The position numbers were made by a program, and so were the translations under genes. Under the pieces are notes generated by a model. The model was not told the origin of the DNA. It saw only the letters and a list, made by a program, of their open reading frames with translations, and ran no database searches. Shown piece after piece: positions 24,869 through 51,479 of a DNA stretch of 64,000 nt; the stretch's first letter is position 1, and each line of letters begins with the position of its first letter. Origin of the DNA: Terriglobia bacterium (lineage in GTDB: Bacteria; Acidobacteriota; Terriglobia; Bryobacterales; Bryobacteraceae); the NCBI GenBank assembly GCA_020073305.1, contig JAIQFK010000019.1:1-64000 (forward strand), read 5' to 3'.

Positions 24869-25565
24869 GCCAAAGAAGTTCGAGGCCGGGCTCGACTCCG
24901 ACAGCCGGAAGTCGCCCGTGCGTGTGGCCTTTGTTACGCGGCGCACTTCGCCGCACGTAAAGGCGCAGGATGATGCACTGGTAATGACCTGGCCAGAGAC
25001 GCTGTTCCGCGCCGCGGTGGCGATTGAGGTGCTGGGCATCGCGCTGGTGCTGCTGGCGCTTCTCTGGGACGCACCGCTTGAAGAGCTGGCCGATCCCATG
25101 CAGACGCCCAACCCGGCGAAAGCGCCGTGGTACTTCTTGGGCCTGCAGGAGCTTTTGCACTATTTCCCACCCGTGATTGCAGGCGTACTGATCCCCACGA
25201 TGGTGATCGTGGCGCTGATCGTCATTCCGTATTTCAACATCAACGTGGAAGCAGAAGGCGTTTGGATGCGGGCCAAGCAGCGGCGGCTGCGCATTGTGGG
25301 AATCGTGGTTGGCGTGCTGGCTGCACTCTTCGTCGTTTTCGAGGTTTGGGCGATTCTGATTCCGACCCTGGCAGTAGCGGGCTTCATGTTCCTGGCGGCG
25401 GCCAGTTCGGCGGATTCACCTGACAGATTCCGCCGGTGGCTGGTGGCGAAACCGCTCTCGTTCTGGATTATGAGCTGGTTCCTGATCCAGGCGTCGGTAC
25501 TGACCATCATTGGCACTTTTTTTCGCGGTGCGGGCTGGGCGTGGGTTTGGCCGTGGAGGGCTTGA
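24861..25565 (+). CDS. Cytochrome b subunit IV-like protein (C-terminal cytochrome b)
   Basis: 234 residues starting [20 protein letters not shown] at the ATG overlapping the b6 stop. The motif [20 protein letters not shown] includes the PxW Y sequence (here APWY, replacing PEWY) of the quinol-oxidation site. Three hydrophobic spans occur as in subunit IV, plus an additional two at the C-terminus ([40 protein letters not shown]). The longer tail could host an extra contact with the octaheme cytochrome encoded immediately downstream (TGATG overlap). Confidence 0.9.
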
Positions 25566-27616
25566 TGGATCTCAGGCGGAAAGTCGCGGCGGCTTGGGCG
25601 TTCCTGTTTGGCGACAGTGCGCGCGCCTTCGGCACGCTGAGCCTTGTGCTGGTCGCATGTCTGGCGGTGGTCCCGGCCAAAGATCATTTTCGCGAATGGT
25701 CACGGTATCAAACGCGGTATCTGCGGTTGATCCGGCAGCGCGGTGATGCAGCCACGTTACAGCGACGGTTTCAGCCGGGGTTGCAGCAGACCTGGTTGCC
25801 CGAATTAGGTGTCGTGGACCGCTGCACGACCTGCCACGTGGCGATGAAAGAGACCTCGCTGGCGGACGTGAGCACGCAGCCGTTCCGCCCGCATCCGGCG
25901 ATTCCCCACTCGCTGAACGAGTTCGGGTGCGTGATGTGCCACCGCGGGCAAGGCGCGGCGACCACGGTGGAAGAGGCGCACAGCAGTACGAAGGCGTGGG
26001 AGCAGCCGGTGCTGCCGGCGCGTTACTTCGAGGCTTCCTGCGGGCAGTGCCACCAGAATTCGCTCACCGGCACGCCACAGCTCAACCTGGGAAGGAAACT
26101 ACTGGCGCGATATGGGTGCGTGAGCTGCCACGCGCTGCGAACGGCGGGCGCGGCGCGAATGATGCCGACCAATGAGCCTCCGCCGCTGACGCACGTGGCA
26201 CGAAAGACCACGCGGGAATGGATTTATGCGTGGCTCAAGAATCCGCAAGCCTACTCCGTCTCCGCCACCATGCCGGACTTCAAGCTGAGCGACGCGGATG
26301 CGCGGGATATTTCGGCGTTCCTGATCGATCAGAGCACGCCGTACCAGCAGCCGGATGCGTCGAAATCATCAAGTGCGGCCGCCGACGCTCAGGAAGGCGC
26401 CAGCGTGTACGGCGAATCGTTCTGTGCGTCGTGCCATGCGGTGCAGAATGCGGCGGGGTTGATGGTAGGCGGCGACGTTGGGCCGGAGCTGACGCGCATC
26501 GGGTCCAAGGTGAAACCGGAATGGCTGGGCACCTGGCTGCGGGAACCGAAGTTGTACGCCCCGCACACCGCCATGCCGCGGTATCGATTCAGTGAGAAAC
26601 AACTGGGACTGTTGGCGGGTTTTCTCGAGGCCAAGACGGACAGCGATCTGCTGGCCAATGTGCACCTGGATGCTGCGACCAAGGAACAGATCGCACACGG
26701 CAAGGCGCTTGTGAACGAGCGGGGTTGCGCATCGTGCCACGAGCTGAACGGCATTAAGAAGCCGGACAACTTTGCCCCCGACCTCAGCGTAGCGGGAAGC
26801 CGCTCGCTGGCCAAGATCGTATTCGCGCCGGGAGTTCCGCACACGCTGCCGGATTACCTGGCGGCCAAGATCCGCCAGCCGAGCGCCTTCGGGAGTGCAT
26901 TGAAAATGCCGCAGTACAATTTGACTCCGGTGCAAGTGGACGCGCTGGTGACGGGCTTGTTGGCGCAGACCGAGCGCGCCGAAGCCATACCCGCCGTCTT
27001 GAGAGTGGCAGGGACACCGGTGTTGAAATACGACCCTGCAGGCAAAGCCGGCAAGCTCATGCAAGACATGCAATGCTTCAGTTGCCACGCGATCAACGGC
27101 CGCGGCGGCGACATGGCGCCCGATCTCACCTGGGAAGGAAGCGCGGTTCAGCGGGCGTGGCTTCTGACTTTCCTGAAGAATCCGAACACTCTGCGACCGG
27201 CGCTGATCCGGCGCATGCCACGGTTCAACCTGACGGATGCCGAAGCCCAGACGCTCACCGACTACATCCTGACGGCGTACCAGACGCCGGCCTTCGATGC
27301 GGACTCGCTCGACAGCGCAAGCTTTACGGCTGAGGACCGGGAACGCGGGAGGCAGCTCTTCTACTCGAAATACGCGTGCCAGTCCTGCCACATTGTCGAT
27401 GCGCAGAATGATAAGGGTTACGTCGGGCCGACGCTGACGGAGATCGGAGCGAAAGGGACGCCTGCCTGGACATTTCATTACCTGAAAAATCCACAACTGC
27501 TGCGGCCTGGAAATATCGAACCGAACCAGAGCATGAGTGACGCGGACGCACGAGCGCTCACCGCGTTTCTAATGGCCCAGAAGAAGGCGCCGGCGCAGGA
27601 GGCGGCAAAGAAATGA
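25565..27616 (+). CDS. Octaheme c-type cytochrome, membrane-anchored
   Basis: 683 residues. One N-terminal span (FGTLSLVLVACLAVV) and eight CxxCH sites at about residues 87, 122, 159, 185, 287, 388, 504 and 605. The first four are crowded (CTTCH, CVMCH, CGQCH, CVSCH), while the last four each begin a cytochrome c-like domain of 100-115 residues with the motif WLxxPxxxxPxxxMP. The gene overlaps subunit IV by one base. In bc-type complexes of non-photosynthetic bacteria a multihaem protein replaces cytochrome c1 or f; this is the obvious candidate here. It would carry electrons from the Rieske centre outward. Confidence 0.9.
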   Translation: MDLRRKVAAAWAFLFGDSARAFGTLSLVLVACLAVVPAKDHFREWSRYQTRYLRLIRQRGDAATLQRRFQPGLQQTWLPELGVVDRCTTCHVAMKETSLADVSTQPFRPHPAIPHSLNEFGCVMCHRGQGAATTVEEAHSSTKAWEQPVLPARYFEASCGQCHQNSLTGTPQLNLGRKLLARYGCVSCHALRTAGAARMMPTNEPPPLTHVARKTTREWIYAWLKNPQAYSVSATMPDFKLSDADARDISAFLIDQSTPYQQPDASKSSSAAADAQEGASVYGESFCASCHAVQNAAGLMVGGDVGPELTRIGSKVKPEWLGTWLREPKLYAPHTAMPRYRFSEKQLGLLAGFLEAKTDSDLLANVHLDAATKEQIAHGKALVNERGCASCHELNGIKKPDNFAPDLSVAGSRSLAKIVFAPGVPHTLPDYLAAKIRQPSAFGSALKMPQYNLTPVQVDALVTGLLAQTERAEAIPAVLRVAGTPVLKYDPAGKAGKLMQDMQCFSCHAINGRGGDMAPDLTWEGSAVQRAWLLTFLKNPNTLRPALIRRMPRFNLTDAEAQTLTDYILTAYQTPAFDADSLDSASFTAEDRERGRQLFYSKYACQSCHIVDAQNDKGYVGPTLTEIGAKGTPAWTFHYLKNPQLLRPGNIEPNQSMSDADARALTAFLMAQKKAPAQEAAKK

Positions 27617-29918: not shown

Positions 29919-31526
29919 TTACCTTCCGACCGCAAAGTTGACGAACTCTTTCAAGCCAAAGGTTTTGCCGTCGCCAATCGTGGGTTTCCAGTTGGGATCC
30001 AGCGTGAGGAACGACTGGCTGTCGTACACGAGGAGGCCGGCGAAAGTTTCGGCGACGATGCGGCCGCCAACGGGACCGAGCAGCTTCGATTTGACGCCAT
30101 GTAGTCCCGGGACGGTGTGGTGGTCGGTCTCAGCGAGACAATAAGCCCAAAGAGGACAGTTGTCCTTGAATGCCGAGCTGATTGTTTCGATCGGCTTAAC
30201 ATCCTCTTTGTCCTCAAACTTGCCGATTTTGATGGGGTCGATGACGGTCTCGCCCATAGCTTTGGCAGCGGATTGGCCGTTGGGGAGCCTCAGCCGCCAT
30301 CCGCGGACGAGGTTTCTTTCCGCGAGAGAGGGGATGATGAGGTCGGCGACATCCGGAGGGAGTTTGCCGAGGGGGAAGACGATGGAAGGGTCGATGCGAT
30401 AGGCGAGTTGCAGGCGCTTCTTGTTGTCAGCGAGCTGCTGGGCGGATGGAGGTTTGCCGTCTGGGGTATTGCCATTGTCGTCGAGCATGACACCGTAAGG
30501 CCGAGGCTCGATGTCGATGAAGCGGGCCCAATCGAGGGCCCAACCATCGGCGGGGGCCATGAAACCACGGAGGCTCTTGGGGCGGGTGGGAGGACCGTCC
30601 TGGCCAAAGATGGGCAGGAGCGTGTCGTCGGAGTCATTCAGGCGATAGCCTGGGCGAATCATGGAATGGCCGAAGCGGTATGCGGCAACGGAGAATTCAA
30701 GCGGCATAAACGCCAGGTCACGGGCGTGATAGAACTTCAAGACCGGCGGGTTATCGGCGATGGAAGTTTTTGCAGCCAGGTGCGGGAAAACCGTGTGCAA
30801 AGTCTTCTTATTCACCAGGGTTGGGAGGAAGTCATTGATGAGCATCCACTGGTAGTGAAAGCGAAGGGTGCGTTGGGCATCCGCGAAGTTGAGCCTCTTG
30901 TCGTCGATGAGGCGGTTGTGGAAGCGGAGAAAGAGGGTTTGCAGCTGGCTGACGAGGCCGTTTTCGTCGTTACGCGGGTCGCCGATGATGGCGCGTGCGG
31001 GTTGCCCGGGGGCGACGTTAGAATTGTTGCGCGCCAGATCCTGCGCGGGGGGCTTGATGGGAGGAGCTCCCGTAAGCGCTTTACCGAGAAGGAATTTGGC
31101 GCGGTCGGAGCCGCCAGTGAAGTCGTAGAGGTAGGGTTGATCGTCGGGGCCGCGACCGTAAACGTTGTCGAGATCGAATTTGGGAGTTCGGAAGTCGACC
31201 AAGCCATCAGGGTCGTTTTGCTTCTGCAGGCTGCTGGACGGATCAAAGGTGATGTCGTGGTCGACGAACTGGCCGAGGTAGGTGTATAGGGCAGGAATGC
31301 CACTCTCTTCCGTGTCTGGACCATCCTTGGGTTTATCGTCGGTACCCACCATTGCCTTTCCCAGGAGTTTTAGATTTGACTGGGTTTCGTCGTCATTGGC
31401 GCCGAAATCCGCAGGAGGAAGTGCGCGGAAAATACGCCCAAAAGCGCCACTGAAAGAGATAGAGCCGCGAGAGAGGTTCAGCCCGCGAACGCCCTGACCG
31501 TGAGGTGCAAGATTTTTGCGAGTCAT
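29919..31526 (-). CDS. Animal-type haem peroxidase (copy 1)
   Basis: 535 residues, no signal peptide. The distal site is TYLGQFVDHDITFDP (Gln86, Asp89, His90), where Asp and His match the haem-linking Asp and distal His of the myeloperoxidase/peroxinectin superfamily. RNDENGLVSQLQTLFLRFHN holds the catalytic-Arg region, and AAYRFGHSMIRPGY the proximal His. These enzymes oxidise halides or organic substrates with peroxide. A paralogue lies at 49950-51479 with the same layout. The N-terminal HGQGVRGLNL motif is shared. No neighbour supplies peroxide here, unlike the second copy. Confidence 0.9.
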   Translation of the reverse strand: MTRKNLAPHGQGVRGLNLSRGSISFSGAFGRIFRALPPADFGANDDETQSNLKLLGKAMVGTDDKPKDGPDTEESGIPALYTYLGQFVDHDITFDPSSSLQKQNDPDGLVDFRTPKFDLDNVYGRGPDDQPYLYDFTGGSDRAKFLLGKALTGAPPIKPPAQDLARNNSNVAPGQPARAIIGDPRNDENGLVSQLQTLFLRFHNRLIDDKRLNFADAQRTLRFHYQWMLINDFLPTLVNKKTLHTVFPHLAAKTSIADNPPVLKFYHARDLAFMPLEFSVAAYRFGHSMIRPGYRLNDSDDTLLPIFGQDGPPTRPKSLRGFMAPADGWALDWARFIDIEPRPYGVMLDDNGNTPDGKPPSAQQLADNKKRLQLAYRIDPSIVFPLGKLPPDVADLIIPSLAERNLVRGWRLRLPNGQSAAKAMGETVIDPIKIGKFEDKEDVKPIETISSAFKDNCPLWAYCLAETDHHTVPGLHGVKSKLLGPVGGRIVAETFAGLLVYDSQSFLTLDPNWKPTIGDGKTFGLKEFVNFAVGR

Positions 31527-37615: not shown

Positions 37616-40174
37616 TCACTTGAGACCATCCACCAGGTAGAGCTCAGACAGTTCGCGCCGGTAACAGTAAACGTAGCTCTTGCCGTCCGGGGTGCGCAGG
37701 ATGGGAGCCAGACTGTTTACGCCGGCGGGATCGGCGGGCATAAACTCCTTCCAGAACTCCTTGCGCCCGGTGGCGAGATCCACGCGGTAAACTTTGGCCG
37801 GCAGTTCGGCGCGTTTGTACACATAAAGGGAGCGACTGTCGGATCCCCACTGGGTGGGAGTATCATCCGGATCGAGACCGGAGATCTCGCGCGGCTCGCC
37901 TCCCCCAACCGGATACAACACCAGCTTGCCTTCGGGATTGCGGCAGGCCGCCCATTGACAGTCGGGCGAAACCGGAATCCCGAGATCCGAAATGCCTTCC
38001 GGCGTGAGGGGGCGGGCTTTGCCACCCACGAGATCCTGCACGTAGAGGCGCAGGGCATGACCCGGCTCATTGCCGGCAATCAGGATTCTGTTACCGTCGG
38101 GGAAGAAACTCGCAAACTGATAATTGATGCCCTGGCGCTCAAGGGGCCGCGGCTCGCCGGTTCCGGTGGGATAGAGAATCAATTGAGACACCGAGGTCTG
38201 CGAGGCAATGGAGAGCGCCCACTTGCCATCGGGAGAAAGCCCGGCCGCCGAACCCTCCCCGATCTTGACGGCAGGTTCTCCATTTGTCTTACGGATATAC
38301 ATGGCGTACGTAGCGCCGCCGCCTTCGCCCGACTCCAGAAACATTACGGTGCGTCCGTCCGGAGAAAAACCGCGGACCAGAGAGCGGTCGAGCCAGGACA
38401 AATCTCTTTCCGTTTTTTCTCCAGGCGCCAGCGCCACCATGCCGCGACGGGCGCTGTCGCGGGTAACCAGCACACGGCCATCGCGGGAGATGTCATCCAA
38501 AGTCAAGGTCCCCGCCATGCGGCTCACCACCCGTTCCTTGCCATTGAGGGAAACCGCGTAGAGAGCGCGGGCCACGCCCACGCGCGTAGCGGTGAACCAA
38601 ATCTCGCCGCCCTTTGGGGCCCAGGCCAGACCCATAATGCTGAGCCAGCCCGAGGCCAAGGTGCGCTTTTTCCCAGCCAGATCGACCACCGCCACCGCCC
38701 CGCCATCATCGGCCCGCACCGGATGGTCGAGGAAAGCCACAAGGTTCCCTTTCGGCGAGACGCGCGGGTGACTGATCCATCCCGCCGTCTCGTAGAGAGT
38801 CTTTCCGGCTGGGAATTCCAGCCGGCTTCTGCCAGCCACTTCGTGCACCGTAGCCAGATTGGAGCCGTCGAGCGCCCAATCGGCCTCCTGCACGTCTTCC
38901 AGAATCTCGCGCGAAGCGCCCCCAGCCAGGGAAGCGCGGGCGAGAGTACCGCTGCTGACGAAGGTGCCCAGCGAACGCCGCTTTACCGATATCGCCATTT
39001 CGCCGGTGGAAGAGATCGAGAGAATCTCCGAATCCGGAAATCCCAGGGCGCGGGAGTCGGGCCCTTCGGGACGCGTGGAGAAAATCTCCACCGGATTGCC
39101 ATCCCAGGCGGCGCCGTAGACGATGGTCTGGCCATCTGGGGCAAAGCGCGCCGACAGAATCGTGCCCCGGCGAAAAGTCAGCAGGTGGAAAGACGGAGGC
39201 AGCGACTTCGCCGTCCGTTGGCCGAAATAAAAGCCGCCGAGCGCCGCTATGACGGCCAGCACCGCTGCTGCAGGAAGCACCAGGCCGCGGAAGGCTCGCA
39301 AGCGGGAGGGCCGCGTTCCGGGGGCGTCGCCCGTGAGCATCGCTAAGTCGAACGCGATGTCATGGGCCGAGCGGAAGCGGTCCTCGGGGTTCTTTTCCAG
39401 GCAGTGCCGGATGATGTGCTCCAGCGCCGGAGAAAGCCCGGGGTGCGTTACCGGAATCGGAGGCGGCTCCGACTTGAGGATGGCGTGCATGGTTTCCGTA
39501 TCGTCTTCTGCTTTGAACGCACGCTTGCCGGTGAGCATTTCATAGAAGAGCACGCCGAAGCTGAAGATGTCGGAACGATGGTCGACCGTCAGCCCGCGCA
39601 CCTGCTCCGGCGACATATAGCCGACCGTTCCCATCACGATGCCGGCGGCCGTCTTGGGCGCATCCGAGCCGGGCTGCCCCGCCGGCGCGGCTCCCGGGCG
39701 CGTCAGCTTGGCCAGCCCGAAATCCAGAATCTTCACCCGGCCGTCGTTGGTGATGAAGATGTTTTCCGGCTTCAAATCACGATGCGTAATGCCTTTTTCA
39801 TGGGCGGCGCCGAGGCCGGCGGCGATCTGCAGAGCGTATTCGATCGCCTTGCGGGGGCTCAGCGCCACGCCGCCCAGCCGCGCGTGAAGGGTTTGTCCTT
39901 CCAGAAGCTCGGAAACCAGGTAAGGCGCGCCTTGGTAATTGCCAATATCGTAAACCGCAAGGATATTGGGGTGGTTCAACATCCCGACGGCTTTGGCTTC
40001 CTGCTCGAAACGGCTGAGGCGGTCGGGATCGGACGCCAGCTCGCTCGGCAAGACCTTGATCGCCACCTTTCGGCCCAGGCGTGTGTCTTTGGCGCTCGAA
40101 ACTTCTCCCATCGCGCCCTCGCCGATCGGCTTCAGAATCTCGTAATGATCGATCTTGGTTCCCGTGGGCAGCAT
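37616..40174 (-). CDS. Ser/Thr kinase with WD40/TolB-type propeller (tandem copy 2)
   Basis: 852 residues. The kinase domain has GEGAMGEV (about residues 18-25), [28 protein letters not shown] and SPEQVRG, so it should be active. A span ([20 protein letters not shown]) separates it from an extracytoplasmic propeller with repeated [18 protein letters not shown] and FSPDGRTVM motifs. Such receptor kinases are strongly expanded in Solibacter. The gene starts 26 bp after the paralogous kinase and shares its whole architecture, pointing to tandem duplication. GGGAG precedes the ATG. Confidence 0.92.
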
Positions 40175-40200
40175 AGCTGCTTTTCTCCCGGCTTCTCTTA

Positions 40201-42810
40201 CTACTTCAGGCCTTCAACCAGATAGAGGACTGATAAGAGTCGCAGGTAAGCATAAACATAAGCCTTACCGTCCGGGGTCACGCGCAGGCCCGAGACTCCG
40301 TCCAGGCCCGCCGTGTCGGAGGGAGAGAATTCCCTCCAAAATTCCTTATGCCCGGTGGCAAGGTCCAGGCGATAGACCCTCCTCGGCAACACACTTCTCC
40401 GGCTAACGTAAAGAGAGCGGCCGTCGCCACTCCACTGGCTCGGCTGCTCGCCTTCTTCCAGGCCCGCAATCGGCCGCGGCTCTCCGCCGTCCACCGGGTA
40501 CATTGCAAACTTTCCATCCGGATTCCGGGCAACTAAGAATTTCCCGTCAGGCGATACGCTTTCGAGCGAATTGCTGACAGCCCCCTCCGGCGTAATGGGA
40601 CGCGGCTTGCCGCCTGATATGTCCCCCACCCAGACCCGCGCCGCATGCCCCGGCTCATTCCCGGCGATCAAGATCCGCTTGCCATCCGGCAGGAAGGTTG
40701 CTCCTACGTAGTTGATGTCGTCTCGTTTCAGCGGCCGGGGGTTTCCGGCGCCGGTGGGATAGAGAACGAGTTGCGGAGCCGAGCTGGTCGACGTTATTGC
40801 GAGCGCCCATTTTCCATCCGGGGAGAACCCCGCCCCTGCCCCATCCCCGATGCGAACGGCCGGAGATCCGTCAGTCTTACGAATATATAGACCGTAAGTG
40901 GCGCCGCCGCCTTCCCCGGCTTCAACGAAAAGCACGGTCCGCCCGTCGGGCGAGATATCGGCAGGCAGGGACCAGTCCAGCCAGGCGAGCTCCCGCTCCC
41001 TGGTCTCGCCTGGCGCCAAGGCGATCATCCCCATGCGCTGGTTGTCGTGGGCGATCAATGCGCGCCCATCGCGCGAGATGTCTTGAAGGGTTAACGTGCC
41101 TGGCGCCCGAGCGACCAGCCGCTCTTTTCCCCCGAGGGTCACAGCGTGCAGAGCGCGCCCTGAACCTTCCCGAGTTGCTGTAAACCACACCTCGTCTCCG
41201 CCGGCCCCCCAGGCGAGGCCGAGCGCACTGATCCAGCCGCTCGAAAGCGTTTTCTTCTTCGCGCTCGCGTCCACGACCGCGACCGAGCCGCCGTCGTCAC
41301 CGGTGGCGGGGTGATCCACAAACGCCACCATGTCCGATTTGGGGGACACCCGGGGATTGCTGATCCAGCCGGCGGTTTCGTAGACAACCTTGCCCGCCGG
41401 GAACTCGATCTGTTCTCTTCCGTTGGCACTACGGACGATTGCCAGGTTCCCGCCAGAGGGAGCCCAGTCGGCCTGCTCCACCTCTTCCTGAATTTCTCGC
41501 GAAGCCCCGCCTGCCAGCGCCGCCCTGGCCAAGGTTCCCGCAAAACTGAAAGGCCCGGCAGAATGCTCCTTCAGGGAGATCGCCATTTCGCCGGACGGGG
41601 AAATCGAAAGAATATCCGCCCCTGGATAGCCGAGGGTGCGGGACTCGGAACTTTCCGGGCGCGTTGAGTAAAGCTCGATGGGATTGCCGTCCCACTTCGC
41701 GCCATAAACGATCGTCAGGCCGTCGGGCGCGAATCGCGCTGCGCGGATCGTCCCGCGGCGGAAGGTGACGGCGTGGAACGAGGGGGGCGTGGTCTTGCCC
41801 AGACGCTGGCCGAAAAATAGGCCGGCCGCCAGCATGACCAAGGCGGCGGCGGTGGGCACCAGAACCAGCTTGGCCCTTGACGTTACCGGCCTGGCCGCAG
41901 CAGCACGCTCAGTTTGGGTTAGGGCGACTGCCGCCGTGGTGGTCGATCCCGAGACGGAAGACAGGGCATCAAGATCGTAGGCCATGTCCCGCGCCGATTG
42001 AAACCGCTCATCCGGGCTCTTTTCGAGACAATGCCGCACCATACGGTCGAGAGCCGGCGGCAGGTTAGCAACCGTTGCGGAAAGATCCGGTGGGTCTTCT
42101 TTGAGAATCGCCGTCATCGTCTCGGCCGGCGTCTCGCGGCGAAAGGCGCGATGGCCGGACACCATCTCATACATGATTGCCCCGAAGCTGAAGATGTCCG
42201 AGCGGTGATCGGCTGACTGGCCGCGCACCTGCTCTGGCGACATATAGCCGACAGTTCCGAGAATCGCCCCAGGAGTGGTGTGCTCCGCCAGCGTCGTGGA
42301 GTCCTGGTTTCCTCCGGCGCGCGGCGTTTCCGGCCGGGTGAGCTTGGCCAGGCCGAAATCGAAGATTTTGATCCGGCCGTCCTTAGTGACAAAAATATTC
42401 TCGGGCTTCAGGTCGCGATGGGTGATGCCCTTCTCATGGGCGGCGGCGAGGCCGCGGGCGATTTGCTGTCCGTAATCGACCGCCTTGCGCACAGACAGAG
42501 GCTTGCCTCCCAGGCGGTCGCGCAGTGTCTCGCCTTCCAGCAGCTCCGAGACCAGATAAGGCGAACCGTCATGGGTGCCAATGTCGTAAATCGCCAGAAT
42601 GTTCGGGTAATTGAGCATGCCGGCGGCTCGCGCTTCCTGCTCGAAGCGCCGGAGACGATCCGGATCGGTCGCCAGCGTGCGCGGGAGGACCTTCACGGCA
42701 ACCTCGCGTCCGAGGCGCCCGTCCTTGGCGCGATAGACCTCGCCCATTCCGCCGGCGCCGAGCGGCGAGAGCACTTCGTACGGACCGAGCTGCGTTCCCT
42801 GATTTAGCAT
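40201..42810 (-). CDS. Ser/Thr kinase with WD40/TolB-type propeller (tandem copy 1)
   Basis: 869 residues; it opens [20 protein letters not shown] with the glycine loop [37 protein letters not shown] and SPEQVRG are intact. A Thr/Ala-rich juxtamembrane segment (about residues 285-310) precedes the membrane span ([20 protein letters not shown]), and the propeller carries [19 protein letters not shown] and VSPDGKFLV. It is the first gene of the tandem pair. The signal sensed by the propeller is unknown. Confidence 0.92.
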
Positions 42811-43997: not shown

Positions 43998-45182
43998 CTA
44001 TGGAGTATTTGTGTTGATTGCGATGGCTTCGAGCACGCCTCTGCGCAAACACCAGGACATGATCGACCGCGCCCTGGCGCCGCTCACGCCCAGGGAATGG
44101 AGGTGGCCAAGCAAAGCAGCCGAGGTTACGGGCTTGCGGGCCAAGTGTTCGAACTCCAGGAGATCGACACCGCCTAGCCAGCGCACGGCAGTCTGATCGG
44201 CGAATAGAACTGCGTCGGAAGTTACAATCCGTGACTCGATGCTCAGTTCTGCGGTGCCGCGGCGGCCGGAGAAACGGACCTTTTCGGGCAACGGCTGAGG
44301 TGGTGCGGGAGGCTGGTCCAATTCCAGCTTATCGAGGAATTCCAGATGGCGGATGCGAGCCTGATTGACGAAGTCGCGGTAGAAGCGGGATGCGGGCGCG
44401 GTGTCGCTTTTCTCACTCCAGGTTTGAATTACGGAAGCGGCGGCGAAGGCAGACGCGAGCGCGAAGCGGATACCATGACCCGCGAGAGGATCGTAGGCGA
44501 ACGCGGCGTCGCCCACTGCGATTCTGCGGCCTCTCACAGGGTCTTCGCACCATTGCGGAAAGGCGGGGCGGCGACCCAGATAGCGTGCGCCGGGTGGGCC
44601 GTGAGAGGGGCGGCTGCGCGTACTTACGACGCCGAGTGTGGAGCCGATCCGATACATCCAGCGATCCGGCGTTCGCTCGATGCGGCCTCGCTCGGCGGCG
44701 GCGGCGGGAATTTCGAAAAGATCGGCGACCTGGTTGCCTTGGCGGTGGATGGGTCGTGACCATGCGGCTGAGCGGCCCGTTGCGTCCACGGCAGCAAAGC
44801 AGTCAGCAGGGACAGAAGGCAGGCGCCGCACCATGGAGATTTCTACGCCGCGAGCGACGGCCTCTTGGATCGCCGCTGAAGCGAAGACGCTGCGCTCGAT
44901 GTGGAGCCAGCGGCCTGGAAGTAAAACGGGGTCGGAGCGTATCCAGGCGTTTTCAAAACCCTCCACGATTTTCCCGCCGGCAAGGGCCACAGCGCGGTCC
45001 AAACCAAGCTCCCGGATGAGGGGGAAGGCCGCTTCGGGAATCGCCTCCACGCCCGGCATGATGGCGCGTTGGATTGAGATCAGCCTGGGGAGAAAACCCA
45101 GCGAAACCAGACGCAAAGCCGTGGCTGCCGCGGCAATTCCGGTGCCGGCGATTACAATTTCGCTTCCTTTTTCTATTGACAC
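43998..45182 (-). CDS. FAD-dependent oxidoreductase, LodB/QhpG-like (PHBH fold)
   Basis: 394 residues starting at GTG. The FAD Rossmann motif is IVIAGTGIAAAATALRL. The second FAD motif, RRIAVGDAAFAYDPLAGHGI, is the GD...DPLxGxG signature of p-hydroxybenzoate hydroxylase-fold proteins, and the DPL form is the one I associate with LodB, tryptophan halogenases and relatives. LodB and QhpG are flavoproteins that help create the cysteine tryptophylquinone of LodA-type oxidases or quinohemoprotein amine dehydrogenase. It is divergent (129 bp) from an operon of LodA-like halves and a radical SAM enzyme, which supports a cofactor-maturation role. The sequence alone would allow another hydroxylase. 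Confidence 0.72.
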   Translation of the reverse strand: MSIEKGSEIVIAGTGIAAAATALRLVSLGFLPRLISIQRAIMPGVEAIPEAAFPLIRELGLDRAVALAGGKIVEGFENAWIRSDPVLLPGRWLHIERSVFASAAIQEAVARGVEISMVRRLPSVPADCFAAVDATGRSAAWSRPIHRQGNQVADLFEIPAAAAERGRIERTPDRWMYRIGSTLGVVSTRSRPSHGPPGARYLGRRPAFPQWCEDPVRGRRIAVGDAAFAYDPLAGHGIRFALASAFAAASVIQTWSEKSDTAPASRFYRDFVNQARIRHLEFLDKLELDQPPAPPQPLPEKVRFSGRRGTAELSIESRIVTSDAVLFADQTAVRWLGGVDLLEFEHLARKPVTSAALLGHLHSLGVSGARARSIMSWCLRRGVLEAIAINTNTP

Positions 45183-45311
45183 AGTCTAGCAGACCATGGA
45201 GAATCTCCAAGTGCATTAACTAAATTCCCTGAAAACGCCTGTTAGATTTCGCGCATTAAGGAAGCAGCGCGCCCACTCATGTCTTGTTTTCGCCGGTAAC
45301 GGAGATCCCAG

Positions 45312-46931
45312 ATGACAGTAATCGAACAGATTTTTTTCCAGCCGCCCATGGCCGTGGCTCGCCTGGGTGGAAGCGACACGCCGCTGGCGAGCTTCACCTG
45401 GGTGGAGGATCCGACGACGCATGGTGCGGGCAACACCGTGATCCAACCGGCCACCAGCCTGGAGGTGCAGCAAGACGGGTCCGTCCGGCCGTTCCTGCCC
45501 ATAGCGATCCAGTTCCGCGACGGCAACCTGCTGCGGCCGATAGCGCCATTTTTCGAGCTGTGGGCCAAGGTAAAAGGACAGGCTGATCCCGTACCCTTAA
45601 CCTCGACGCTGCTGGAGTCGAGCGGCGGATCCGTTGACGGCGTCGCCTACACAGTGTCGGTGGGGAACCGCAAGGCCGCGCGACGGACCGGCGACGACTC
45701 CTGCGCGTACGTTGCACAGATTGCGGTCACGGGCAATGACCACGATCGTCACCAGCTCCTGGCGTCCAGTCAGGGAGAACCACCCCTCGTTTTTGCCAAC
45801 AGCCCGATTCCGCTGGGGCAGTTTCAAGCGATTTTGCCGAAGCCGGGAATGGCGCTGGGGATCGACCTCGACCAGCTGCGCGTGCGATTTACGCCGGCTA
45901 CGGGGCAAGTCTATGGCGCTCCAGGCGCGACCAGCGACGTGGATCCGGAGACCAACCAGCGGCATGAAATGGTGCCAGCCGCCCATCGAATTCTCAACCC
46001 CGCCTCCCCGTGGGTTGGCTATAACGCTGGTGGCGCGTTCAACAATCCAGTGCCGGCTGATACTTACGACGGCGCCGACCGGGGCGACTCGCGGAGCTTC
46101 GGCGTGGTGGACGACACCTGCGACGGGTTGATCGAAGCGGTAGTGACGGCGGGTGGCGCACGGTTGCGGGCGATTGCGCGGGTATTCTGTGCGCCACCGG
46201 ATTTTGCGCCTGACCGGCGGCCTTTCGTATCATTGGCCGACGATCTGATCGATCGTGATCCTCCTTCGGTGGAACCGCAAGAAGACGTGGCAGACGCGCT
46301 GCAACGTCTGGCAGATCTATTCCAGCGGGCCTTCGAGACAGCGAGCCTGGCGAACGTCGACGCCACGCGACAGCGATCCATCGGAACCAATCAAGGCACA
46401 CAGGGATCAAGAAACGTGACGGGAACGCCCGCGATTCTGAACGACAGCATGACGCGGCGCGATCAGCCATATTACCGGAAGGACCAGACCGATATTCCGG
46501 CGCCCACTTCCGACGAGCGCGTCCCGTTCCACGATACGGCGATAGAGATGCACGGTCCATTGGCAGACGCCGACGACCTGGCGCTGTTCCTGAGAACGAT
46601 GGGCCCCCATGTGAAGCGCATCATTCGGCCGCCCTACGGGACATTCCAGGAGCTGGCCGCGAATCCATCTCCGACGGCGGCGCCGAATCCGCAGCATCGC
46701 GATCCGCGCATCCTTCGCGACACGCTGCACGATATGCGGATGCCGCCATACATGATCGATTCCGACGGCGGATCGATGTCTCTGACGCAGCGGCAGTACA
46801 AATTTCTGATGGATCTGGTGGATAAACTGCAGCTCAAGCCGGGCGGCGCGGCCGGGTCGCAACCGCTGCCCACCAGCACCAATGCCCACGTGGCGAAAGT
46901 CCTGGCACGCCGCAAGAAGGCGAAGCCGTGA
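45312..46931 (+). CDS. LodA/GoxA-like protein, N-terminal half
   Basis: 539 residues; GGAG seven bases before the ATG. No signal peptide. Features that recall the first half of LodA-family oxidases are the opening FFQPPMAVARLGGSD (compare the IARVG start of LodA), a central FGVVDDTCDGLIEAVV, and the end MRMPPYMIDSD followed by SLTQRQYKFLMDLVDKL, similar to the motif that precedes the cofactor half in LodA. The cofactor-forming region is absent from this protein but appears in the gene at 48253. Its stop overlaps the radical SAM start (GTGA). Assignment rests on motif recall, not alignment. Confidence 0.55.
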   Translation: MTVIEQIFFQPPMAVARLGGSDTPLASFTWVEDPTTHGAGNTVIQPATSLEVQQDGSVRPFLPIAIQFRDGNLLRPIAPFFELWAKVKGQADPVPLTSTLLESSGGSVDGVAYTVSVGNRKAARRTGDDSCAYVAQIAVTGNDHDRHQLLASSQGEPPLVFANSPIPLGQFQAILPKPGMALGIDLDQLRVRFTPATGQVYGAPGATSDVDPETNQRHEMVPAAHRILNPASPWVGYNAGGAFNNPVPADTYDGADRGDSRSFGVVDDTCDGLIEAVVTAGGARLRAIARVFCAPPDFAPDRRPFVSLADDLIDRDPPSVEPQEDVADALQRLADLFQRAFETASLANVDATRQRSIGTNQGTQGSRNVTGTPAILNDSMTRRDQPYYRKDQTDIPAPTSDERVPFHDTAIEMHGPLADADDLALFLRTMGPHVKRIIRPPYGTFQELAANPSPTAAPNPQHRDPRILRDTLHDMRMPPYMIDSDGGSMSLTQRQYKFLMDLVDKLQLKPGGAAGSQPLPTSTNAHVAKVLARRKKAKP

Positions 46932-48253
46932 CCCAGTTAGTGACGCTAGAGGGACAAGCGCGTCCGGCTGCGCCGCCAGCGCCTTGGCGCTTGATCGCGG
47001 GGGAGCGGCCGCTGGTGTTCGTCGTCGACGGGTCGCGGCTGTTCGGGGTGGAGCCGGAGTTCTTTGCGGCGCTCCAGGAAGAACGGCCGGAGGCGCAGCA
47101 GGAGCTGCTGGGCGCCGTGGTTGAAGAATCGCGCCAGAGGGATTTCGCCGCCGGCCTGCCCGAGCCGGCGGCCATCTCGCTGAACATCGCGCAGTCGTGC
47201 AACTTGGCGTGCACTTACTGCTACGCCGATGAAGGACGTTTCGGAGGCGCGCCGCAGTTCATGCCGCTGGAGGTGGCGTTGCAGGCGATCGACCGGCTGG
47301 TTGAGGGCGCGCGGGGCCGCCGCGTGACGGTGGGGTTTATCGGCGGCGAGCCCTTTTTGAACCGCGAGGTGTTGTACGGCAGCGTCGAGCACGCTCGCGA
47401 GCGGGCCCGAGCACATGGCTGCACGGTTGGTTTTTCCGTGACGACCAACGGCACGCTGCTCAACGCAGACGACGTACGATTGTTGCGCGAGAGAGGCTTC
47501 GCCGTCTCGGTGAGTCTCGATGGAGGCGCGGCATTGAACGACCGCCACCGCAGAGCCCGAAATGGCGCCAGCGGATTTGAAGCTGCGCTGGCCGGACTGC
47601 GGCCGCTGCTGGAGAATCCGGGGAAGGCGCGGGTGGCGGCGCGGGCGACCATCGCGCGTGACGATCTGTGCGTAGCGGAGCGGGTGGAAGCGCTGGCGGC
47701 GGCCGGCTTCATTGAGATCGGGGTAAGTCCGCTGCGCACGGGCCCGGATGCGAGCCTGGTGCTTCGCGACGCGGATTGGCCTCGCTTGCTGGAGGAAATG
47801 ATGCGCGCGGCGGAACAGGAATGGAGGCGGGTGCGCGCGGGCGCAGGCTTTCGGTTCTCGAATCTGGCGACGGCCATGAAGCAGCTGCACACGGGTTCCG
47901 CCAAGCCTTTGCCGTGCGGGTCTGCGGCGAACTACGTTTCCGTCAGCGCGCAGGGCGGATACTTTACCTGTCACCGCACGATCGATGATCGGCGATTTTC
48001 TCTGGGAACGGTCGACGAAGGATTGTCGGGGTGGCGGCGCGAAAGTTTCCTGCAAGAGCGCCACGTAGACCGGCAAGAGCCCTGCCGCACCTGTTGGGCC
48101 CGTTACCTGTGCGGCGGCGGCTGCCACGCCGAAGTGCTGAGTGCCGGACGAAGCGGGTGCGATTACATTCGTGGTTGGTTGGAGTATTGTCTCCGATTCT
48201 ACGACCGGGTGTTGCGAGAGCGGCCCGGCCTGCTCGGGGTGGAGGTAGTGTGA
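46928..48253 (+). CDS. Radical SAM/SPASM peptide maturase, QhpD-like
   Basis: 441 residues from GTG 46928 (AAGG upstream). The radical SAM cluster motif is CNLACTYC; GFIGGEPFLN is the GGEP SAM-binding motif. The C-terminal SPASM domain holds auxiliary cluster ligands: PCGSAANYVSVSAQGGYFTC, then PCRTCWARYLCGGGC and a final GCDYIRGWLEYC. This is the architecture of QhpD, which makes thioether bonds in amine dehydrogenase, and of anaerobic sulfatase-maturing enzymes. Overlaps at both ends (GTGA before, TGATG after) place it between the two LodA-like halves, so its substrate is probably one of them. No sulfatase is present nearby. Confidence 0.88.
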   Translation: MTQLVTLEGQARPAAPPAPWRLIAGERPLVFVVDGSRLFGVEPEFFAALQEERPEAQQELLGAVVEESRQRDFAAGLPEPAAISLNIAQSCNLACTYCYADEGRFGGAPQFMPLEVALQAIDRLVEGARGRRVTVGFIGGEPFLNREVLYGSVEHARERARAHGCTVGFSVTTNGTLLNADDVRLLRERGFAVSVSLDGGAALNDRHRRARNGASGFEAALAGLRPLLENPGKARVAARATIARDDLCVAERVEALAAAGFIEIGVSPLRTGPDASLVLRDADWPRLLEEMMRAAEQEWRRVRAGAGFRFSNLATAMKQLHTGSAKPLPCGSAANYVSVSAQGGYFTCHRTIDDRRFSLGTVDEGLSGWRRESFLQERHVDRQEPCRTCWARYLCGGGCHAEVLSAGRSGCDYIRGWLEYCLRFYDRVLRERPGLLGVEVV

Positions 48254-49902
48254 TGGAGAAGATTTTTCCTCTGAATCTGACGGCTCAGGCGGCGAAGGTA
48301 GTGCCGGGAAATCCGGTGACGACGCGCCTGGAAAGTGGCGTGGGTAACTGCTTCCCGGGTCTGGAGTACGATCATCGCAACCTGGACCGCCGCTTTTTCC
48401 CGGGGCTGGTGTTTGAGTTCGGCGACGTCACCGGAGCGCCGCTGGTGCGCGTGGATACCAACGATCCGGATCTGGATCCGGCGACCTTTGAAGGACTGCC
48501 CGCGGATGCACCCAAACCCGCCGTGCAGACCGCATTGCGGACGGCGCTGAACGGAGATCCAGGCAAGGCGCTGCGTCAAGGGTCCTGGGTCTTGGCGTCC
48601 ATCACGCAGGGCAGCAGGACGATCACGGTTACTGACCAACCGGGGCTGACCGTGTGGCGCCTGGTGCGCTCGCTCGACCCGGGGCCGGTGGATATCGTAT
48701 TGACGCGGGACGCCGGGACTCCTAAGAAGATCTCCCTCAGCGGCTGGCGGCGGAGGTTCGTGAGCACGAAGACCGGCGTGATCAGCGGAGCTTTCCAACC
48801 CGGGGAACTGACGCAGAGCCTGTGCTCGCCGTGGATGCATGATTTTCGCGACTGCGCTTGTACTTATTGGGCGTCGAATCACCCGGATATCGTTCTGGCG
48901 GAGCAGGTGCCGGGGGCGGATCCGGATCCGGTGTGGGAGGAGACGCCGATCGACTGGTTACGCTCGGATCGCGCGCTGGCGAGGACGGCGGCCGCGGTAG
49001 GGACCGAAGCCGGAAACCGGCCGGCGCAAATGGACCACTACGAAATCAACGAGCGCTGGCAGGATCTGTCCATTGTGCTGGCCGGGCATGAGGTGTCGAA
49101 TGTTTTCAGCGCGCGGCAAGCCGAGTCGGCGAATCCCTTCGCCAGTCCCGATGAGTTGGCGCAAAAGCTTGCGGATTTGTGCGAGCTGGAGCACGCAGTT
49201 GCGCTCGAGTATTTGTACGCGATGTATTCGGTGAAGGATCCCGCAGTGGCCAAGGGGCAAGCCCTCAAGGAGGCCGTGGCATTCGTCCGGCACGAAATCC
49301 TGATCATCGCGGTGAGCGAGATGAGGCACCTGCGTTGGGCCAATCAGTTGATCTGGGAACTGGAGCAGCACGCCGGGTTGACGACGCCGGGCAAAAAGTT
49401 TGGGCCGTCTCTTGGGATCGCAGCGCAAGTGCCCGGCGCCAAGGGGCCGCGTAAACCCGACCTTCGCGTTCTCGATAAGGACACGCTCGATGACTTCATC
49501 GCTGTGGAGAAGCCGAGCGGCACGCTGGATGGGGCCTATGCGCAGGTGTTGGCGACGTTGCGAGATCCGAGGTATCCGCCACCGCTAGAGCAATTGGCAG
49601 CGCGCATTCTGGCGGACGGCATGGAGCATTTCACGCGGTTCCGCGAGATCCAAAGGGTTCTGGCGCCCTTCGCCGCCGGGAACCCGCCCGCGTATCTGCA
49701 GACCCTGGTCAAGGCGGACGCCAAGAGCGGAAAGGCCGCCTTCGATTTGTACCAGAGTATCGTCGCGGACCTGCGAAGCGCCTACGCATTGGGGGACATG
49801 GAGGATGCCGCATCCATCGCCCGGGCACGAGCGACTATGTTCGAGCTGAAAGCTGAAGCGGATAAGTTGGCGAGTGCGGGGATGGGCGTGCCGTACTTTT
49901 AG
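48253..49902 (+). CDS. LodA C-half-like domain fused to a ferritin-like domain
   Basis: 549 residues from the ATG overlapping the radical SAM stop. Residues 30-60 read GNCFPGLEYDHRNLDRRFFP, recalling the C...FxPGxE block of LodA. Residues 184-210 hold GELTQSLCSPWMHDFRDC and YWASNHPD, close to the LodA block around the modified Trp. Candidate Cys are 33, 191, 201, 203 and candidate Trp 194 and 206. From about residue 300 a ferritin-like four-helix domain follows: CELEHAVALEYLYAMYS, HEILIIAVSEMRH (ExxH at 356-359) and ADGMEHFTRF, giving enough Glu/His for a di-iron site. This pattern resembles the ferritin-like domain of VioB-type proteins. The fusion is unusual. Function inferred, not shown. 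Confidence 0.65.
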   Translation: MEKIFPLNLTAQAAKVVPGNPVTTRLESGVGNCFPGLEYDHRNLDRRFFPGLVFEFGDVTGAPLVRVDTNDPDLDPATFEGLPADAPKPAVQTALRTALNGDPGKALRQGSWVLASITQGSRTITVTDQPGLTVWRLVRSLDPGPVDIVLTRDAGTPKKISLSGWRRRFVSTKTGVISGAFQPGELTQSLCSPWMHDFRDCACTYWASNHPDIVLAEQVPGADPDPVWEETPIDWLRSDRALARTAAAVGTEAGNRPAQMDHYEINERWQDLSIVLAGHEVSNVFSARQAESANPFASPDELAQKLADLCELEHAVALEYLYAMYSVKDPAVAKGQALKEAVAFVRHEILIIAVSEMRHLRWANQLIWELEQHAGLTTPGKKFGPSLGIAAQVPGAKGPRKPDLRVLDKDTLDDFIAVEKPSGTLDGAYAQVLATLRDPRYPPPLEQLAARILADGMEHFTRFREIQRVLAPFAAGNPPAYLQTLVKADAKSGKAAFDLYQSIVADLRSAYALGDMEDAASIARARATMFELKAEADKLASAGMGVPYF

Positions 49903-49908
49903 TTGGTG

Positions 49909-49943
49909 AACTGCCGGGGCCGGCAGGAGCCGGCCCGCCAGTT
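49909..49943. terminator. Hairpin between convergent genes, likely bidirectional terminator
   Basis: AACTG at 49909-49913 pairs with CAGTT at 49939-49943, and the GC-rich inner arms (GGGGCCGGC / GCCGGCCC) pair around the loop AGGA with one or two mismatches. It fills the 47 bp between two convergent stop codons. No T-run follows on the plus strand. Confidence 0.55.
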
Positions 49944-49949
49944 GGAAGT

Positions 49950-51479
49950 TCAGGCTTTCATCGCTTGCTTCAGCAGGTCCGCCATTTTAAAATCGCCGCC
50001 CGATGACTTGAAAGCGTCCAGCGGCTTGAACAGCGGATTCTGGCGCAGAAACGAGTGGCTGTCGGCAAGGAGCAAACCGACCATGACCTCGCCGACGATT
50101 CGACCCCCGACCTCACCGAGGTGGATCGGAGTTTCGTCCTTTACGAACTGTTGCTGTGCTTCGGCGAGAACGTAATACCACAACGGCGCGTTCTCTTCGA
50201 ACAGCGGGGAGATATCCTTGAGCTTGGGGTTCGTCTTCTTGTCCGCCTCGGTAGCCTTGCCGACTCTCAACGAGTCATCATCGATCGGCGTGATACCCAT
50301 GGCGGCGGCCACCGCCTGGCCGGATGGAAGCCCCATGCGCCACCCGCGAAGCAGATTTCTTTGGGGAAGGGACGCCGGATTCGCAGCGACCGAAGGTGGC
50401 AGATTGCCCAGCGGGTTGACCACCGACGTGTCGGGCTTGTAGGCCGGTTGGACACGATTCGGCCCGGACTTCGACGCGGGTCCCATCGTAAAGAACAAGC
50501 TCCAATCGATGGCCAGGTTGTCCGGCGTTTGCCGGAAGCCGACGAGGCTGTCGCCGGTCGTTGAGAAAATCGGCAGGCGATCCTTCATCTTGAGGTTCAG
50601 GCGATATTCCGGGCGGACCATGGAATGGCCGAACCGATACGCCCCGACCGAGAATTCAACCGGCATGAAGGCGTCCTTTTGTGGCTGATAGAACTTGATC
50701 TGCGGCGGATCCTGCAGCACGGTGGTGCCTTTGAGGGTGTGGGGCAGGATGGCGTGCCAAGTGTCCTTCCCGATGATGGTGGGCAGAAAATCGTAGAGCA
50801 CTACCCACTGGTAATGCCAACGGACCATGCGCTGGGCTTCCTCGAACGTTGGCGAGTCCAGGGTATCAACCACCCGGTTGTGGAAGCGCAGCATAGCCGC
50901 CTGCAACTGGCTGACGATGACGTTTTCGTCGTTGCGCGGATCTCCGATTAACGCACGCGCGGGCTCAGTTCCATCGGATTTGTTTCTGGGCAGGCCGCGC
51001 GCATTGGGGTCGTTGTCATTGCCCTTGAGGGCAGCCCCCAAGAGCATGTGCAACCCATCGGTGCGATACAAATAGGGCTGGTCGTCCGGGCCGCGGCCGT
51101 AGACGCTGTCCAGGTCAAATCGCGGGGTGCGAAAATCCACCAGAGCGTCCGGATCGTTTTGGCGTTCCAGGCTGCTGGCCGGATCGAAGGTGAGATCATG
51201 GTCGATGAACTGGCCAAGGTAGGTATATCCGGCGCTGATGCCGGTGTTTTCCTCGTCATCGACCTCGGTTTCCGGGGTTGGCTTATCATCCGGGGCCGAC
51301 GTCATGGCTTGGCCGAGCTTCAACAGGATCTTCTCGTCGAACTCTGCGGCGGGCAACGTGCGGAACATCCGGCCGAAACGGCCTTCGAAGGAAGACGAGC
51401 GACGGTTCAGGTCAGCGCCGCGTACGGCGCCGTGGTGACCAGGCATGGTGTGAGAAAGCGGTGCGGTTGCTGGACTCAT
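49950..51479 (-). CDS. Animal-type haem peroxidase (copy 2)
   Basis: 509 residues; AGGAGG upstream of the ATG. Distal site TYLGQFIDHDLTFDP (Gln90, Asp93, His94), RNDENVIVSQLQAAMLRFHN, and proximal His in GAYRFGHSMVRPEY. It is clearly paralogous to the peroxidase at 29919-31526 (shared RTPRFDLDSVYGRGPDDQPY region) with shorter insertions. It converges on the LodA-like operon. A LodA-type oxidase would release hydrogen peroxide, which this enzyme could use, so a functional link is plausible. No signal peptide seen. Confidence 0.9.
   Translation of the reverse strand: MSPATAPLSHTMPGHHGAVRGADLNRRSSSFEGRFGRMFRTLPAAEFDEKILLKLGQAMTSAPDDKPTPETEVDDEENTGISAGYTYLGQFIDHDLTFDPASSLERQNDPDALVDFRTPRFDLDSVYGRGPDDQPYLYRTDGLHMLLGAALKGNDNDPNARGLPRNKSDGTEPARALIGDPRNDENVIVSQLQAAMLRFHNRVVDTLDSPTFEEAQRMVRWHYQWVVLYDFLPTIIGKDTWHAILPHTLKGTTVLQDPPQIKFYQPQKDAFMPVEFSVGAYRFGHSMVRPEYRLNLKMKDRLPIFSTTGDSLVGFRQTPDNLAIDWSLFFTMGPASKSGPNRVQPAYKPDTSVVNPLGNLPPSVAANPASLPQRNLLRGWRMGLPSGQAVAAAMGITPIDDDSLRVGKATEADKKTNPKLKDISPLFEENAPLWYYVLAEAQQQFVKDETPIHLGEVGGRIVGEVMVGLLLADSHSFLRQNPLFKPLDAFKSSGGDFKMADLLKQAMKA

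What the first reader, a model, noticed from the sequence alone, without database searches (positions are those of the whole stretch)
43998..51479. Split LodA-like oxidase with radical SAM maturase, LodB-like flavoprotein and haem peroxidase
Three coupled genes (overlaps GTGA and TGATG) encode a protein resembling the N-half of LodA/GoxA oxidases, a radical SAM/SPASM enzyme of the QhpD type, and a protein resembling the cofactor half of LodA. A LodB/QhpG-like flavoprotein is divergent, 129 bp away. In known systems LodA is one polypeptide matured by LodB, while QhpD and QhpG serve a different enzyme. Combining both maturation types around a split oxidase would be new. A peroxide-using haem peroxidase at the end fits an oxidase that releases peroxide.
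Basis: partly seen in the sequence, partly recalled or inferred. Interest (0 to 1): 0.88.

Follow-up and report, generated by a model that had tools for sequence, protein, structure and literature searches.

The report
Split amine oxidase with cross-linked cofactor
This bacterial gene cluster appears to encode a two-piece oxidase of the LodA type whose built-in quinone cofactor is assembled by radical-SAM and flavin enzymes of the kind known from a quite different enzyme, which would link two separate cofactor families and can be tested directly.

Summary
All four genes are present in 25 of 28 loci compared, from several phyla. In three relatives both halves are one polypeptide.

The cofactor half keeps the LodA cysteine tryptophylquinone (CTQ) pair (C201, W206) and adds C191 and C203, invariant in 28 of 28 and absent at those positions in 27 of 27 ordinary LodA relatives, whose 28 loci show no such radical SAM gene in the fetched flanks. 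The residues match the ladder that QhpD cross-links in the gamma subunit (QhpC) of quinohemoprotein amine dehydrogenase (QHNDH): Cys27-Asp33, Cys37-Trp43, Cys41-Asp49. With the radical SAM profile as query, 59 of 59 fetched loci had a ladder protein nearby (49 QhpC, 10 already known members); background 0 of 56. One further match, L099, showed none.

I infer QHNDH-type maturation of a LodA-type oxidase; no chemistry was tested. The haem peroxidase is not shown to belong. My searches found no description in print.

The parts
43998..45182 (-). QhpG-like FAD monooxygenase, predicted to hydroxylate the cofactor tryptophan; divergent, 129 bp from the next gene
   Evidence: QhpG 95 bits (cut-off 240), GoxB 53, LodB 46; peptidyl tryptophan dihydroxylase 7ctq E 6.5e-8
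45312..46931 (+). N-half of a LodA-type oxidase, 539 aa
   Evidence: hhalign 99.4, E 2.9e-21 with ordinary LodA; GoxA E about 1e-7; fused to the C-half in L022, L024, L028
46928..48253 (+). Radical SAM/SPASM enzyme of the QhpD type, 441 aa; ten cysteines invariant in 28 of 28
   Evidence: TIGR03906 245.5 bits (cut-off 453)
48253..49902 (+). LodA cofactor half fused to a ferritin-like domain, 549 aa
48349..48366 (+). C33-FPGL-E38: possible third thioether pair (counterpart of QhpC Cys7-Glu16); C33 in 23 of 28, E38 in 28 of 28
48823..48888 (+). Cofactor ladder, residues 191-212: C191-D197 and C203-D212 (predicted thioethers), C201-W206 (predicted CTQ)
49126..49899 (+). Ferritin-like (PF12902) domain with possible di-iron ligands E313, E356, H359, E419, D/E455, H459 (ligand roles inferred)
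   Evidence: 46.2 bits (cut-off 22.3); E313, E356, H359, E419, H459 each in 15 of 15, 455 is D (9) or E (6); helical, pLDDT mostly 70-90
49950..51479 (-). Animal-type haem peroxidase, convergent neighbour; not shown to be a conserved part
   Evidence: PF03098 72.1 bits; a relative beside one other locus only (L033)

Best explanation
The locus makes a two-subunit CTQ oxidase of the LodA type that is matured by QHNDH-type enzymes. Proposed order: (1) the radical SAM enzyme links C191 to the methylene carbon of D197 and C203 to that of D212, and C33 to E38 where C33 is present; (2) the QhpG-like flavoprotein puts oxygen on W206; (3) C201 adds to W206 and oxidation gives CTQ; (4) the finished C-half pairs with the N-half to form the active site; (5) the oxidase deaminates an amine or amino acid and passes electrons to O2; (6) the fused or neighbouring ferritin domain acts on the product or the peroxide. 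Shown here: gene set, homology, residue conservation, co-occurrence. Inferred: steps 1-5. Speculative: the substrate and step 6.
For: Gene set: all four genes in 25 of 28 loci; halves fused in L022, L024, L028. CTQ pair: C201 aligns with LodA Cys516 and D197 with Asp512; W206 with Trp581. Ladder: C191, D197, C201, C203, W206, D212 in 28 of 28. The spacings C-6-D-4-C and W-6-D are the same in QhpC ORFs; published QhpC cross-links are Cys7-Glu16, Cys27-Asp33, Cys41-Asp49 and CTQ Cys37-Trp43 (PMC8172795 passages). QhpC profile against the C-half profile: hhalign score 40.6, E 6.7e-6; best of 200 column shuffles 23.4. Ordinary LodA: 0 of 27 have Cys at either extra position and 0 of 28 loci show the radical SAM. 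Reverse search: 59 of 59 fetched radical SAM loci, of about 102 matches, have a ladder protein nearby, 49 QhpC and 10 this family; background 0 of 56. The window genome has no other PF18417 match, no PF08992 match and no other strong QhpD match.
Against: No chemistry was measured. AlphaFold2 gave no usable model of the cofactor stretch (residues 169-291 under pLDDT 50) or of the N-half (mean pLDDT 45.9), so cross-link geometry and pairing of the halves are untested. Radical SAM and flavoprotein fall below the QhpD and QhpG equivalog cut-offs, and the window's flavoprotein does not group with QhpG on the tree. C-to-C and C-to-W spacings differ from QhpC (2 and 5 here, 4 and 6 there). LodA itself and two ordinary relatives (L110, L115) have a Cys one residue after the C191 position. 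C33 is missing in 5 of 28. The ten family loci of the reverse search were all rows of its query alignment, so it found no new member; one further match, G220 (L099), had no ladder protein by pattern in its short locus. L010 has no flavoprotein in its fetched flanks, though the same genome carries a second complete set (L024). A leader peptide or exporter like those of QhpC was not searched for.
Confidence: 0.78

Rival explanations
1. The radical SAM enzyme makes the CTQ bond itself (C201 to W206) or another modification, and C191 and C203 are structural or bind metal.
For: Some ordinary LodA relatives also have a close Cys-Trp pair without a radical SAM (L084, L085, L088, L110, L112), so the spacing alone does not show what the enzyme does.
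Against: LodA and GoxA have CTQ (PMC4417212 passages) and the ordinary loci examined show no such radical SAM; the two extra cysteines are what goes with it. The nearest characterised relatives, QhpD and PapB, make Cys-Asp/Glu thioethers (PMC9413430 abstract).
Confidence: 0.12
2. The protein is not an oxidase: the LodA fold is a scaffold, and the ferritin-like domain does the main chemistry, as in VioB-type biosynthesis.
For: A ferritin-like domain is present in 26 of 28 loci, with the possible ligand residues kept in 15 of 15 fused copies.
Against: CTQ residues are kept in 28 of 28 and both maturases in 25 of 28 loci, which a scaffold would not need.
Confidence: 0.12
3. A quinone dehydrogenase rather than an oxidase: electrons go to a carrier, not to O2, as in QHNDH.
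For: QHNDH-type maturation; a multihaem cytochrome c lies about 16 kb away at 25436-27616.
Against: The neighbouring proteins scanned named no haem subunit coupled to the genes, and the scaffold is the LodA one.
Confidence: 0.2
4. The split is a sequencing or frameshift artefact of one LodA gene.
For: Three relatives have one fused ORF.
Against: The radical SAM gene lies between the halves here and in 13 other loci; the halves are separate in 25 of 28 loci.
Confidence: 0.01

Closest known systems
LodA/GoxA CTQ oxidases with LodB/GoxB
   Same: Both halves related; CTQ Cys and Trp and the nearby Asp aligned; a flavoprotein beside the oxidase gene; a ferritin-like gene near some of them (5 of 28 loci; fungal cases in PMC4417212)
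   Different: Oxidase split in two; two extra invariant cysteines; radical SAM gene; flavoprotein scores nearer QhpG; Pfam cut-offs not reached
Quinohemoprotein amine dehydrogenase (QHNDH): QhpC, QhpD, QhpG
   Same: Same Cys/Asp/Trp ladder; related radical SAM and flavoprotein
   Different: Ladder sits in a LodA-type protein, not in a gamma subunit of about 9 kDa; no PF08992 match in the window genome; equivalog cut-offs not reached
PapB ranthipeptide maturase
   Same: Second-best match of the radical SAM, 226.9 bits against a cut-off of 340; makes Cys-Asp/Glu thioethers (abstract PMC9413430)
   Different: Its substrate is a peptide with Cys-X3-Asp/Glu motifs; here a large enzyme subunit
VioB-type ferritin-like proteins (PF12902)
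   Same: Domain over the Pfam cut-off
   Different: Only the domain is shared; VioB model 14.5 bits against 1250

Membership tests
LodA/GoxA oxidase | CTQ Cys and Trp at LodA C516 and W581 | tested here: met
   C201 and W206 in 28 of 28
LodA/GoxA oxidase | Curated family cut-offs for LodA_N and LodA_C | tested here: not met
   11.9 of 26.3 bits and 20.6 of 25 bits
LodA/GoxA oxidase | One polypeptide | tested here: not met
   Two genes here; fused in L022, L024, L028
LodA/GoxA oxidase | LodB/GoxB maturase as partner | tested here: not met
   Flavoprotein scores higher for QhpG and is under the LodB and GoxB cut-offs; LodB group separate on the tree, 96/96
LodA/GoxA oxidase | Amino acid oxidase activity with peroxide release | not testable with these tools
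   Needs protein
QHNDH | Gamma subunit QhpC (PF08992) | tested here: not met
   No match in G000
QHNDH | Cys/Asp/Trp cross-link ladder | tested here: met
   spacing differs at two steps; the cross-links themselves not testable
QHNDH | QhpD and QhpG equivalog cut-offs | tested here: not met
   245.5 of 453 and 95 of 240 bits
QHNDH | Di-haem alpha and beta-propeller subunits | not tested
   No search with QhpA or QhpB models was run; Pfam scans of the neighbours chosen named none
PF12902 ferritin-like | Family cut-off | tested here: met
   46.2 of 22.3 bits
PF12902 ferritin-like | Bound di-iron centre | not testable with these tools
   Possible ligands conserved in 15 of 15 fused copies; metal not observable

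The most novel reading that the evidence does not exclude
A new branch of CTQ enzymes in which a LodA-type oxidase carries a QHNDH-type radical-SAM cross-linked cofactor cage and works with a di-iron ferritin domain on the same chain. It would show that the QHNDH gamma subunit and the LodA cofactor domain are one protein family, with this system as the link between them.
Probability: 0.55. Interest if true: 0.9.

Novelty: new variant of a known kind. Interest (0 to 1): 0.84.

Why it matters
Two routes to the same cofactor, LodA with LodB and QhpC with QhpD and QhpG, are treated as separate in the papers seen. This family joins them: LodA scaffold, QhpC ladder, QhpD- and QhpG-like enzymes. It predicts which cysteines and aspartates are linked, it predicts that a radical SAM maturase of this kind acts on a large enzyme subunit and not only on peptides and a small subunit, and it gives annotators a rule (Cys ladder plus radical SAM) for proteins now listed as hypothetical, ferritin-like, FAD-dependent monooxygenase or tryptophan 7-halogenase (the annotated records among).

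Tried and rejected
Direct sequence searches of the Protein Data Bank with single proteins gave nothing for the C-half and one GoxA match at E 0.72 for the N-half; profiles were needed, and even so LodA came up for the C-half only at E 0.08. AlphaFold2 models were too poor to test the cofactor geometry. A fold search never ran. The idea that C33 (the NCFPGLE cysteine) is the CTQ cysteine was dropped: it is missing in 5 of 28 and falls beside the PGxE motif of ordinary LodA where those have an invariant Phe (read by eye). The idea that a five-residue Cys-Trp spacing marks radical SAM systems was dropped: some ordinary LodA proteins have it too. The haem peroxidase as a fixed part was dropped. 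Nearby peptidases (trypsin-like, C25) in L033 and L036 might play the part of QhpE, but were not followed.

Rows left out before counts: L011 (contig cut) and L015 (gene broken) were left out of the 28-row alignments; L001-L008 and L016-L020 duplicate larger loci; L014, L034 and L040 were left out of the 25-row N-half alignment and L025 (contig end) out of the 24-row flavoprotein alignment. The 28 loci come from 27 genomes, G166 having two. Of 18 plasmid records, 13 were fetched, the other five being from genera already fetched. Of 36 plasmid records with ordinary LodA, 10 were fetched, chosen for variety. In one search one of 28 LodA loci (L090) gave no motif row, and L021's own ordinary LodA was not in that count. 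The 56 background loci partly overlap each other. In one search, 59 of about 102 radical SAM matches had loci; those without were mostly lower scoring.
Full report
What is there. Divergent from the rest, at 43998-45182, is an FAD protein. Then come three overlapping genes: a LodA N-half (45312-46931), a radical SAM/SPASM enzyme (46928-48253) and a LodA cofactor half fused to a ferritin-like domain (48253-49902). A haem peroxidase follows on the other strand (49950-51479).

Relation to LodA. Single proteins barely reach LodA models. Family profiles do: N-half 99.4 % probability, E 2.9e-21; C-half 96.2 %, E 2e-9, against 14 ordinary LodA proteins. In L022, L024 and L028 one ORF of 717-719 aa carries both halves in order, which argues that the two proteins here are halves of one enzyme type.

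Distribution. Searches with the C-half gave 6 of 200 genomes in the order and 5 of 396 in the phylum, the window's own genome included in both, 7 loci in named genomes and 18 plasmid records. It is patchy but wide: Bryobacterales, Paraburkholderia, a Binatota genome, Nostoc, Streptomyces, Embleya, Rhizobium, Bradyrhizobium, Mycetohabitans, Microvirga and others. In the 28 loci compared all four genes are present in 25; L009 and L014 are cut by contig ends and L010 has no flavoprotein in its flanks. Three gene orders occur: N, radical SAM, C with the flavoprotein divergent (window, L012, L013, L030); N, radical SAM, C, flavoprotein; and N, C, radical SAM, flavoprotein. The ferritin domain is fused to the C-half in 15, lies in a separate or N-fused gene in 11, and was not seen in L029 and L041.

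The cofactor residues. The C-half profile aligns with LodA over PGDLTKRMACPWQADFFNC, so that D197 is LodA Asp512 and C201 is Cys516 (E only 0.08 for that short match, but the C-half to ordinary LodA profile match has the same register). W206 falls on Trp581. Cys516 and Trp581 form CTQ in LodA (PMC4417212, passages). Two more cysteines, C191 and C203, are invariant in 28 of 28; LodA has Ala506 and Ile518 there, though also a Cys at 507. In 27 ordinary LodA relatives, from the same order and from plasmids of other groups, the first position is Ala (23), Gly (3) or Ser (1) and the second is never Cys; two of them (L110, L115) have Cys one residue later, as LodA does. None of their 28 loci shows the radical SAM gene in the fetched flanks; 25 have a flavoprotein and 5 a ferritin-like ORF.

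The match to QHNDH. Six QhpC ORFs found with PF08992 read, for example, GLCQPVERDLFDCHLGCFWPAHVPD; the window reads SLCSPWMHDFRDCACTYWASNHPD. In QHNDH, Cys7, Cys27 and Cys41 are linked to Glu16, Asp33 and Asp49 around the CTQ Cys37-Trp43, and QhpD makes the three links (PMC8172795 passages; PMC7876137 passages). The counterparts are C33-E38 (C33 in 23 of 28), C191-D197, C203-D212 and C201-W206. Profile comparison of QhpC with the C-half gave score 40.6, E 6.7e-6, against a best of 23.4 in 200 column shuffles; QhpC with ordinary LodA gave 38.1 against 23.1. Two unrelated profiles gave 0.4 and 5.6 % probability. So QhpC, the LodA cofactor domain and this family look like one family; I saw no paper that says so. 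PMC7876137 does state that Asp33 of QhpC corresponds to an Asp conserved in all tryptophylquinone enzymes.

The maturases. The window's radical SAM matches the QhpD model best, 245.5 bits, below its curated cut-off; all 28 family members match that model, which has the lowest best E-value of the models listed, and ten cysteines are invariant. On a tree the 28 form one group, 96/96, near QhpD; outgroup branches are long. The window's flavoprotein matches QhpG best, also below the cut-off; of 24 family members 24 match QhpG, 20 LodB and 19 GoxB. On its tree 16 LodB-type proteins form one group, 96/96, and the flavoproteins of the N, C, radical SAM loci join QhpG, 90/95; the window's own sits in a separate group on long branches, so the tree does not place it with QhpG.

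The other direction. With the radical SAM profile as query, two searches of 396 and 200 genomes gave about 102 matches; all 59 with fetched loci have a ladder protein within about 1.5 kb, 49 QhpC and 10 this family. The ten were already in the query alignment, so this adds the 49 QhpC cases, not new members. The same strict patterns hit 0 of 56 other loci, 474 kb. One further, weaker match, G220 (L099), showed no ladder protein by pattern in its short locus. In the window genome there is no QhpC, no other LodA_C match and no other strong QhpD match, so the neighbouring C-half is the evident target.

How it most likely works. The radical SAM enzyme ties C191 to D197 and C203 to D212, the flavoprotein oxygenates W206, C201 adds to it, and the C-half joins the N-half to give an amine or amino acid oxidase. 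The ferritin domain (possible ligands kept in 15 of 15) perhaps acts on the product or the peroxide; ferritin-like genes also lie near some ordinary lodA genes (fungi, PMC4417212). The cofactor stretch is predicted disordered when the C-half is folded alone (residues 169-291 under pLDDT 50). That is what one would expect of a stretch held by cross-links and a partner, but with seven sequences in the alignment it is weak evidence.

What is not shown. No chemistry, no substrate, no structure of the pair. A peroxidase relative was near one of 27 other loci.

Print. Searches for LodA with GoxA and radical SAM, QhpD with LodA (44), tryptophylquinone with radical SAM and operon (45), two of LodA, radical S-adenosyl and maturase (120; 15 of 94 papers listed), QhpC with thioether and radical (121), LodA with QHNDH (135), and related terms (20, 92, 122, and 136 with 8 of 5,472 listed) showed no account of such a system. 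The library holds open-licence papers only. The 2015 survey of LodA genes does not use the word radical in its main text. Of PMC4417212 I saw passages and section 7; of PMC7876137 and PMC8172795, passages; of PMC9413430, the abstract; of the others, search listings only. VioB's role in violacein synthesis and the di-iron reading of PF12902 are recalled, not from a call.

Noticed in passing
window 29919-31526 (-): A second animal-type haem peroxidase, related to the one at 49950-51479.
   Followed up: partly
window 37616-42810 (-): Two tandem, similar genes of 852 and 869 aa just upstream of the locus that look like serine/threonine kinases (sequence; not searched).
   Followed up: no
L021 13379-18049: An ordinary LodA, a LodB-type flavoprotein and a ferritin-like gene lie directly beside the split, radical SAM-associated set in the same genome.
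   Followed up: partly
L034 5019-6653: In Nostoc sp. UHCC 0302 the N-half ORF begins with a ferritin-like domain and only the second part of the N-half follows.
   Followed up: no
L015 9036-11915: A broken relative: radical SAM and C-half are in pieces and a flavoprotein remnant lies on the other strand over the radical SAM piece.
   Followed up: no
L126: A variant QhpC ladder ([27 protein letters not shown]) beside a QhpD-like radical SAM that scores highest after this family; the genome has two such enzymes.
   Followed up: no
L099: A QhpD-like radical SAM (about 223-228 bits) with no ladder protein found by pattern in its short locus.
   Followed up: no
L033, L036: Trypsin-like and C25 peptidase genes beside the oxidase sets on rhizobial plasmids; might process a subunit as QhpE does for QhpC.
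   Followed up: partly
L041 11803-15728: A multicopper oxidase and a tyrosinase gene follow the set in Mesorhizobium sp. AR10, echoing the neighbours of some ordinary lodA genes (PMC4417212).
   Followed up: no
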